Shown: positions 30,793 through 42,369 of the stretch, piece after piece | How positions within the stretch are numbered: position 1 is the stretch's first letter | How the letters are laid out: every line of letters starts with the position of its first letter | DNA from: Candidatus Bathyarchaeota archaeon | Lineage (GTDB): Archaea; Thermoproteota; Bathyarchaeia; 40CM-2-53-6; DTDX01 | NCBI GenBank assembly: GCA_018396775.1 | Contig: JAGTRF010000009.1 | Location: 1-64,000, forward strand | DNA length: 64,000 nt | Direction: 5' to 3' | Notes under the pieces: generated by a model | The model's input: the letters and a program-made list of their open reading frames with translations, nothing else | What the model was told of the DNA's origin: nothing | Databases searched by the model: none | Program-made: the position numbers and the translations under genes

Positions 30793-31344
30793 TTGCAAGA
30801 AGTAGTTGTGCTACGTTGGGGTCATAGATCTAGAGATTTAAGAGTGACAACGCATTTAGCTTTAACAGCTAGAGCTTTCGGAGCTTCAGGTTTAATTCTC
30901 TCTGATGTTAAAGATGAGAAAATTGAAAAATCAATTATGAAAGTTAACGAGTTGTGGGGTGGAAAATTCTTTTTTAAAATGGGGATTCCATGGAGAAAAG
31001 TTGTTGAAGAATGGAGAAAAAACAATGGTATAATTGTTCATCTTACAATGTATGGAGAAAACATAGAATCGAGCAATCTTCAAAAAATAAAAGAAACTGG
31101 AAGAAATGTTTTGCTTATAGTTGGAAGTCAAAAAGTTCCTCGAATCTTTTTTTCACCAGAAATCTCAGATTTTAACGTAGCTGTTGGAAATCAACCGCAT
31201 TCTGAAGTAGCTGCTATAGCTGTTTTTCTAGATAGGTTTTTTAATGGGAAAGAGTTGATTAAAGAGTTTGAAAACGCTAAAATTCGCATAATCCCATCTA
31301 AAAGATCTAAAAAAGTTTTAAGATTAAAAGCGAATTTTTCCTAA
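30793..31344 (+). CDS. trm56: tRNA (cytidine-56 2'-O)-methyltransferase aTrm56
   Basis: This 183-residue SPOUT methyltransferase modifies C56 in the T-loop of archaeal tRNAs. The start VVLRWGHRSRDLRVTTHLAL and the SAM-binding knot VGSQKVPRIFFSPEISDFN and VGNQPHSEVAAIAVFLDR are diagnostic. The TTG start follows AAGGAAG. It is 14 nt downstream of mbf1, so probably co-transcribed. The T-loop it modifies in tRNA-Pro at 42112-42229 is interrupted by an intron in this genome. Confidence 0.93.
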   Translation: MQEVVVLRWGHRSRDLRVTTHLALTARAFGASGLILSDVKDEKIEKSIMKVNELWGGKFFFKMGIPWRKVVEEWRKNNGIIVHLTMYGENIESSNLQKIKETGRNVLLIVGSQKVPRIFFSPEISDFNVAVGNQPHSEVAAIAVFLDRFFNGKELIKEFENAKIRIIPSKRSKKVLRLKANFS

Positions 31345-41071: not shown

Positions 41072-41302
41072 ATGAAAAATGAGGTAGTAGTAACAAGAAA
41101 AGGTCAAACTACAATTCCAGCTAAATTTCGTATGAAATATAAAATTGAGGAGGGCACTAGGCTTAAAGTTATTGAAACTGAAGAAGGCATTCTTCTTAAA
41201 CCAGAAAAGTCGACAATCGATCTTACCGGTTCTGGAGCAAAATATGCAACTCCAGAAGAAATGAAGAAGATTTTAGATAAGCTTAGGGAAGAAGATGTCT
41301 AA
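41072..41302 (+). CDS. vapB: AbrB-family antitoxin
   Basis: This 76-residue protein starts KNEVVVTRKGQTTIPAKFRM, the swapped-hairpin AbrB/MazE fold, followed by KYKIEEGTRLKVIETEEG and a helical toxin-binding tail (ATPEEMKKILDKLREED). It should repress its own promoter and neutralise the PIN toxin encoded next, with which it overlaps by 8 nt. This is the only toxin-antitoxin pair of PIN type in the window that is fully intact. Confidence 0.9.
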   Translation: MKNEVVVTRKGQTTIPAKFRMKYKIEEGTRLKVIETEEGILLKPEKSTIDLTGSGAKYATPEEMKKILDKLREEDV

Positions 41303-41681
41303 AACTGTTTATGATACAAGATTTTTCATTGAACATTACTACTCTAAGGATAGAGAAATCCTTCAAAAAACCAAGGAAGAAATAAGAAAAACCAAAAAAA
41401 GGTATATCTCAGTTATAACAATTCATGAAATATACAAGCTTACACTTGAATTGGAAGGGCGGGAAACTGCAATCTTAAGAGTAAGCTTGCTAGAAAAAGA
41501 CTTCAAAGTAGTAAATATAGATTCGGAAATTGCAAAAAACTCAGCTGAATTAAGACATAAATATAAAATCCCGCTGGTTGACAGTATAATAGCAGCTACA
41601 AGCCTGCTTTTAAATGCTGTATGCGTTTCAGATGACCCTCACTTTAAAGCCATCAAAGAAATTAAAACTAAATGGATTTAA
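41295..41681 (+). CDS. vapC: PIN-domain RNase toxin (VapC)
   Basis: This 128-residue PIN nuclease has Asp in VYDTRFFIEHYY, Glu in ISVITIHEIYKL, Asp in PLVDSIIAATSLLL and Asp in CVSDDPHFKAI, so the metal site is complete. VapC toxins cut tRNA or rRNA. It is translationally coupled to the AbrB antitoxin. The pair lies about 180 bp from an integrase remnant and 430 bp from a tRNA gene, suggesting acquisition with a mobile element. Confidence 0.9.
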   Translation: MSKTVYDTRFFIEHYYSKDREILQKTKEEIRKTKKRYISVITIHEIYKLTLELEGRETAILRVSLLEKDFKVVNIDSEIAKNSAELRHKYKIPLVDSIIAATSLLLNAVCVSDDPHFKAIKEIKTKWI

Positions 41682-42111: not shown

Positions 42112-42128
42112 TGGTGGGGCAGACGGGA

Positions 42129-42150
42129 TTTTCATGGTCTAAATAACCAT
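42129..42150 (-). other. T-loop intron of tRNA-Pro (position 59/60)
   Basis: The precursor folds as the T-stem, then TTCA pairing with TGAA (4-bp central helix), 3-nt bulges AAA and AAT on opposite strands, and an inner helix TGGT/ACCA closing loop TATTTAG. Cutting after the second base of each bulge removes exactly 22 nt and restores TTCAAAT. This is a textbook strict BHB motif. Confidence 0.9.
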
Positions 42151-42172
42151 TTTGAACCCGTGACCACCAGCG

Positions 42173-42189
42173 GTCTAAGCTTAGCAGCT
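42173..42189 (-). other. Anticodon-loop intron of tRNA-Pro (position 37/38)
   Basis: The anticodon stem is followed by CTGG pairing with TTAG (two G-U pairs), bulges GGA and ACC, and an inner GCT/AGC helix with loop GCTA. Cutting after the second base of each bulge removes 17 nt and leaves the loop CTGGGGC with anticodon GGG and G37, as expected for proline. Confidence 0.88.
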
Positions 42190-42369
42190 CCCCAGGCTGG
42201 TATCCTAGACCAAGCTAGACGACTGCCCCACCCTATTTTTATTGATATAATAATCTCTAAAGTTATCTTATTTAAGCGTTTTTAAACTTTTATTTTTAAG
42301 TTGCCTTCATTATAAACTGTTAAAAAGCTTTAGATAATTCTCTAGCTTATTTTATTATTTAGGAGAGGA

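What the first reader, a model, noticed from the sequence alone, without database searches (positions are those of the whole stretch)
42112..42229. tRNA-Pro(GGG) with two introns, one in the T-loop
Seen directly: a complete minus-strand tRNA interrupted at 37/38 (17 nt) and at 59/60 (22 nt). Each intron folds into a 4-bp central helix with opposite 3-nt bulges, and cutting the bulges after their second base restores a perfect consensus tRNA. T-loop introns are known mainly from Thermoproteales and a few other archaea (established knowledge). Strict BHB geometry outside the anticodon loop suggests a splicing endonuclease of broad specificity. The 22-nt intron also breaks the site of C56 methylation by aTrm56, encoded here.
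Basis: partly seen in the sequence, partly recalled or inferred. Interest (0 to 1): 0.85.

Follow-up and report, generated by a model that had tools for sequence, protein, structure and literature searches.

The report
Proline tRNA gene with two introns
This archaeal proline tRNA gene really is interrupted by two small removable pieces, one inside the usually untouched T-loop; that kind of interruption is already known and turns out to be common among its relatives, but the same lineage also seems to carry a tryptophan tRNA gene cut by five introns, more than the maximum of three given in the papers read.

Summary
Window 42229-42112 (-) is the only tRNA-Pro(GGG) gene found in this 1.33-Mb archaeal MAG. 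It has a 17-nt intron at 37/38 (42189-42173) and a 22-nt intron at 59/60 (42150-42129). Both sit in strict bulge-helix-bulge motifs, and removing them restores a standard tRNA-Pro. The T-loop intron is conserved in four families of the order, in Pro(GGG) and Pro(CGG), with compensatory changes, so this is not a decaying gene. It is not unusual in kind: 59/60 is a listed non-canonical position, a covariance model finds such introns in 37/38 genomes of the order and 82/397 of a phylum sample, and the window's genome has at least five (Pro x2, Glu, Trp, Phe). The expected enzyme is the broad-specificity (alpha-beta)2 endonuclease; beta is in the assembly, alpha (with the Crenarchaea-specific loop region) only in the sister species. 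The aTrm56 point is refined: the insertion does not cut C56, it pairs it inside the splicing helix. Most novel by-product, inferred from comparison only: tRNA-Trp with five introns (10/11, 28/29, 37/38, 45/46, 59/60), against a published maximum of three, two of the five being near-identical copies.

The parts
42190..42229 (-). Exon 1 of tRNA-Pro(GGG): mature positions 1-37; anticodon GGG at 42193-42191
   Evidence: ARAGORN on spliced product
42173..42189 (-). Intron 1, 17 nt, canonical position 37/38. BHB: central helix exon 42195-42192 (CUGG) with intron 42178-42175 (UUAG); bulges 42191-42189 and 42174-42172; 3-bp inner helix
   Evidence: sister species has the orthologous 17-nt intron with one G-U turned to G-C
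42151..42172 (-). Exon 2: mature positions 38-59, including T-stem 5' strand ACGGG and UUCAAA (54-59)
42129..42150 (-). Intron 2, 22 nt, T-loop position 59/60. BHB: central helix exon U54-A57 42156-42153 (UUCA) with intron 42134-42131 (UGAA); bulges 42152-42150 and 42130-42128; 5-pair inner helix
   Evidence: covariation over 15 orthologous/paralogous T-loop introns
42112..42128 (-). Exon 3: mature positions 60-73 plus genome-encoded CCA (42114-42112)
30793..31344 (+). aTrm56, tRNA (cytidine-56)-2'-O-methyltransferase, whose target C56 is base-paired in the precursor
   Evidence: PF01994 E=1.3e-45; NF003048 E=1e-61

Best explanation
This is the working, sole tRNA-Pro(GGG) gene found in the genome of an intron-rich archaeon. 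Shown: the transcript can fold into two strict bulge-helix-bulge motifs, at 37/38 and 59/60, whose removal gives a standard tRNA-Pro. Inferred: the lineage's (alpha-beta)2 splicing endonuclease cuts each 3-nt bulge after its second base, a ligase joins the three exons, and only then does the T-loop take its normal fold so that enzymes such as aTrm56 can modify it. In the precursor the conserved T-loop bases U54-U55-C56-A57 serve as one strand of the splicing helix, paired with UGAA near the 3' end of the intron. Because UUCA is nearly universal in tRNAs, almost any tRNA can host an intron at this point, which would explain why 59/60 introns recur in Pro, Glu, Trp and Phe genes.
For: Solver and ARAGORN agree on the spliced product. 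No second tRNA-Pro(GGG): BLAST of the spliced tRNA finds only this gene at full strength. Same-genus G001 has the orthologue with 17- and 28-nt introns. Pro(GGG) in families f2, f4 and f5 of the order also carries a 59/60 intron with 18-23 nt of different sequence but nearly the same exons. Over 15 T-loop introns 95.8% of cells pair, 5 of 13 pairs show double changes, and sliding the partner by 1-3 columns drops pairing to 38-57%. Model R1 finds 59/60 introns in 37/38 genomes of the order, 69/257 of the class and 82/397 of the phylum sample. Endonuclease: beta-like subunit in the MAG; alpha with the catalytic Tyr/His/Lys region and a segment aligning with the Aeropyrum and Sulfolobus alpha chains, including the crenarchaeal loop, in G001; most relatives have both types.
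Against: No RNA data, so splicing is not shown. The catalytic alpha subunit is not in this assembly; that it lies in an assembly gap is inferred. The G001 T-loop intron has one mismatch (A57-G) in the central helix. The ligase was not looked for.
Confidence: 0.93

Rival explanations
1. A decaying pseudogene with two insertions that are never removed.
For: Standard finders do not call it; alpha endonuclease subunit absent from the assembly.
Against: Perfect acceptor, anticodon and T stems after splicing; only tRNA-Pro(GGG) found; T-loop intron kept in four families with compensatory changes.
Confidence: 0.03
2. The T-loop insert is kept in the mature tRNA as an enlarged T-loop and only the 37/38 intron is spliced.
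For: The insert folds as a stable hairpin on top of the T stem.
Against: Exact BHB geometry with cut sites restoring UUCAAAU; insert length varies from 12 to 28 nt and its sequence is free apart from the BHB bases; T-arm introns are known in other archaea (PMC4090602, PMC6379350).
Confidence: 0.02
3. The T-loop intron of Pro(GGG) was copied recently from Pro(CGG) by gene conversion of the T-arm.
For: Both genes share intron ends and similar 3' halves in this genome.
Against: Pro(GGG) of families f2, f4 and f5 has its own 59/60 intron, so it is as old as those families' split; shared ends follow from BHB constraints.
Confidence: 0.1
4. The introns are kept because they protect the tRNA gene from integration of mobile elements.
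For: About 190 bp beside this gene is shared with the flanks of Pro(TGG) and Arg(CCG) and looks like a partial coding remnant.
Against: The remnant lies next to intron-bearing genes, so protection would be incomplete; no family match for the remnant.
Confidence: 0.15

Closest known systems
Non-canonical BHB tRNA introns of Thermoproteales, e.g. Pyrobaculum islandicum tRNA-Pro(UGG) with introns at 25/26, 37/38 and 56/57 (PMC4090602)
   Same: BHB introns at canonical and T-arm positions in one proline tRNA gene of an archaeon
   Different: Position 59/60 rather than 56/57; anticodon GGG; two introns, not three; a different archaeal group
59/60 introns listed in a review (PMC4090602), and T-loop BHB motifs in general (PMC6379350)
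   Same: Same site and same BHB logic
   Different: The order studied here has them in nearly every genome and in several isotypes
Crenarchaeal (alpha-beta)2 splicing endonuclease (PDB 3ajv, 3p1z, 2cv8)
   Same: Sister-species alpha aligns over its whole length including the crenarchaeal loop region, E=5e-42 to 5e-46; separate beta-like subunit
   Different: Alpha not found in the window's own assembly
Cyanidioschyzon merolae pre-tRNA-Ile(UAU) with a T-arm intron (PMC9602550)
   Same: A T-arm intron that must go before T-loop modification; cmPus4 does not act on precursors with the T-intron
   Different: Eukaryote; Psi55 rather than Cm56; three introns

Membership tests
Archaeal BHB tRNA intron | 4-bp central helix flanked by opposite 3-nt bulges | tested here: met
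   Both introns
Archaeal BHB tRNA intron | Cutting after the second bulge base restores a standard tRNA | tested here: met
   Cloverleaf score 33.2 and ARAGORN tRNA-Pro(ggg)
Archaeal BHB tRNA intron | Removed in vivo | not testable with these tools
   No RNA data
Non-canonical 59/60 (T-loop) intron | Insertion between positions 59 and 60 | tested here: met
   UUCAAA|22 nt|U; homologues
(alpha-beta)2 splicing endonuclease lineage | Two separate subunit genes, catalytic alpha and structural beta | tested here: inconclusive
   Met in G001 and most relatives; own assembly has only beta
(alpha-beta)2 splicing endonuclease lineage | Crenarchaea-specific loop with Lys in alpha | tested here: met
   G001 alpha segment GFYGKPIGIPKPKPNQDFNAPL aligns with the loop region of A. 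pernix and S. tokodaii alpha; sequence alignment only, and in the sister species, not the window's own genome
tRNA pseudogene | Broken stems, or an intact second copy | tested here: not met
   Stems intact; no second copy

The most novel reading that the evidence does not exclude
The lineage carries a tRNA-Trp(CCA) gene split by five introns (10/11, 28/29, 37/38, 45/46, 59/60; 131 nt of intron against 74 nt of exon). This exceeds the published maximum of three introns per tRNA gene, and two of the introns (10/11 and 45/46) are 16/17 identical and follow the same exon motif CCGTAG, i.e. an intron copied within one gene. Sister families keep four of the five introns and an almost identical mature tRNA.
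Probability: 0.75. Interest if true: 0.65.

Novelty: new member of a known kind. Interest (0 to 1): 0.45.

Why it matters
The gene itself adds a clean case to a known class, and the finders used here miss it, so genomes of this order may appear to lack tRNA-Pro(GGG). The wider point is that T-loop introns are a routine feature of this order, in several single-copy tRNAs, and each uses the conserved UUCA of the T-loop as half of the splicing helix. That makes a testable prediction: T-loop modifications, including Cm56 by aTrm56, must wait for splicing. The five-intron tRNA-Trp, if confirmed by RNA, raises the known limit of tRNA gene fragmentation and gives a readable case of intron copying between sites.

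Tried and rejected
ARAGORN and Rfam on the raw window miss the gene; used only as evidence that annotation could lose it. Idea that the Pro(GGG) T-loop intron was a recent transfer from Pro(CGG) in the window's genus: dropped after Pro(GGG) of other families proved to have it. Strict-BHB solver on tRNA-Trp gave no sensible parse because three of its introns have relaxed motifs; the five-intron parse rests on comparison of five genomes instead. In one search the script took the wrong strand for G000 and G002; their introns are read. A coding remnant beside the tRNA resembles the start of an integrase by eye, but Pfam, PHROGs and phage records gave nothing.

Full report
OBSERVATION. Read on the minus strand from 42229, the sequence is GGGGCAG-TC-GTCT-AGCTTGGTCTA-GGAT-A-CCAGC-CTGGGG [AGCTGCTAAGCTTAGAC] C-GCTGG-TGGTC-ACGGG-TTCAAA [ATGGTTATTTAGACCATGAAAA] T-CCCGT-CTGCCCC-A-CCA. 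I wrote a solver that lists all bulge-helix-bulge introns (4-pair central helix, two 3-nt bulges) and scores every spliced product as a cloverleaf. The product is called tRNA-Pro(ggg) by ARAGORN; the unspliced gene and the gene with only the first intron removed are not. Shuffled introns reach the same BHB scores in 387 and 73 of 200,000 trials. The two motifs together with a restored, fully paired tRNA are not chance.

GENE STATUS. A search of the 1.33-Mb genome (98.5% complete, 24 contigs) with the spliced tRNA finds only this gene at full strength. An anticodon-arm pattern finds one gene each for Pro(GGG), Pro(CGG) and Pro(TGG). The gene therefore looks like the sole tRNA with anticodon GGG, and hence probably essential (inference).

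CONSERVATION. The same-genus genome G001 has the orthologue with a 17-nt and a 28-nt intron. Its first intron turns a G-U of the central helix into G-C; its second has a different, longer inner helix and one mismatch in the central helix. Pro(GGG) genes of families f2, f4 and f5 of the order also have the 59/60 intron, with two or three further introns each. Pro(CGG) has it in f1, f2, f4 and f5 but not in the f3 and f6 genes read. Pro(GGG) genes found outside the order with the search pattern have no T-loop intron, though several have a 37/38 intron. Over 15 T-loop introns the BHB plus inner helix pairs in 95.8% of cells, with 17 double-changed cells against 5.6 in shuffles, and collapses when slid.

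HOW COMMON. A covariance model of T-stem plus T-loop intron (R1, built from those 15, the window included) finds matches in 37/38 genomes of the order and 69/257 of the class at E<=0.1, and in 82/397 near-complete genomes of a phylum sample at E<=0.001. Inspected phylum hits are real T-loop introns, for instance tRNA-Glu(UUC) and tRNA-Phe(GAA) in other families. In the window's own genome T-loop introns are in Pro(GGG), Pro(CGG), Glu(CTC), Trp(CCA) and Phe(GAA). Published reviews already list 59/60 among non-canonical positions and report T-loop motifs (PMC4090602; PMC6379350). So the finding is a new member of a known kind.

MECHANISM. In the 59/60 introns examined the central helix is formed by U54-A57 (UUCA) and intron bases three to six from the intron's 3' end, usually UGAA. 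The host sequence is close to universal, so only the intron has to bring the matching four bases. This is what the sequence shows; that it explains why introns recur at this site is inference. The enzyme: relatives carry two endonuclease genes, a catalytic one (E about 1e-27) and a weaker beta-like one. G001's alpha aligns over its whole length with Aeropyrum and Sulfolobus alpha chains, through the loop that gives broad specificity (PMC6379350). The window's MAG has only the beta-like gene, which lacks the catalytic His region; the alpha locus of G001 lies between glyS and a TFB gene, and the best match in the MAG to that TFB is only 44% identical, so an assembly gap over this locus is most likely (inference).

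aTrm56. The gene at 30793-31344 is aTrm56. The intron does not cut C56; it lies three bases downstream and pairs C56 inside the splicing helix. That modification must follow splicing is inference, with a published parallel: in C. merolae, Pus4 does not modify U55 while a T-arm intron is present (PMC9602550).

BY-PRODUCT. The own tRNA-Trp(CCA) gene (L288) parses into five introns at 10/11 (17 nt), 28/29 (18), 37/38 (57), 45/46 (17) and 59/60 (22). G001 and the f4 genome G004 have the same five with other sequences; G010 (f5) and G002 (f2) have four. The mature tRNAs are near-identical and ARAGORN calls all five tRNA-Trp(cca). The 10/11 and 45/46 introns of the window's genome differ in one base of 17. 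The papers read give a maximum of three introns per archaeal tRNA gene (PMC8450103), and full-text searches found no higher count, though most subscription papers are not held. Three of the five motifs are relaxed (a 3-of-4 central helix or no outer helix), so this needs RNA evidence.

LIMITS. No expression data.

Noticed in passing
L288 (G000:C13:25300-25900), gene on + strand; also L293, L292, L291, L253: tRNA-Trp(CCA) parses into five introns in the window's genome, G001 and G004, and four in G010 and G002, with near-identical mature tRNA; the published maximum found is three.
   Followed up: partly
L288, introns at 10/11 and 45/46 of tRNA-Trp: The two introns ACAAAACATTGGCGGAC and ACAAAACATTGGCGGAA are 16/17 identical and both follow CCGTAG: apparent intron copying within one gene.
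   Followed up: partly
L249, L260, L226, L252: tRNA-Pro(GGG) genes of other families in the order have four introns (D-arm, anticodon stem, 37/38, 59/60); the L252 count is read by eye.
   Followed up: partly
window 42112 down to about 41930 (-); L324, L327, L326: About 190 bp just 3' of tRNA-Pro(GGG) is ~80% identical to the 3' flanks of tRNA-Pro(TGG) and tRNA-Arg(CCG), and shorter to tRNA-Trp; it holds the start of a small ORF (MPKKAKYAFLLEDEKARLWFRNLARGSKIT in the Arg copy) that may be an integrase remnant; no family match.
   Followed up: partly
L031:1237-1758 in the window's genome; L295 in G001: The assembly holds only the beta-like splicing endonuclease subunit; the catalytic alpha gene near glyS in G001 is missing from it.
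   Followed up: partly
L182, L289, L008 (upstream gene), L014, L023, L024, L025, L283, L285: Many other tRNA genes of this genome carry non-canonical introns (D-arm, anticodon stem, variable loop, T-loop), often two or three per gene.
   Followed up: partly
L253 (G002) and L234 (G188): tRNA-Trp genes of two genomes placed in different families differ by about one base over the whole gene, introns included, which suggests MAG contamination or recent transfer.
   Followed up: no
window 41295-41681 (+): ORF that looks by eye like a PIN-domain VapC-type toxin near the tRNA flank; no partner gene was looked for.
   Followed up: no
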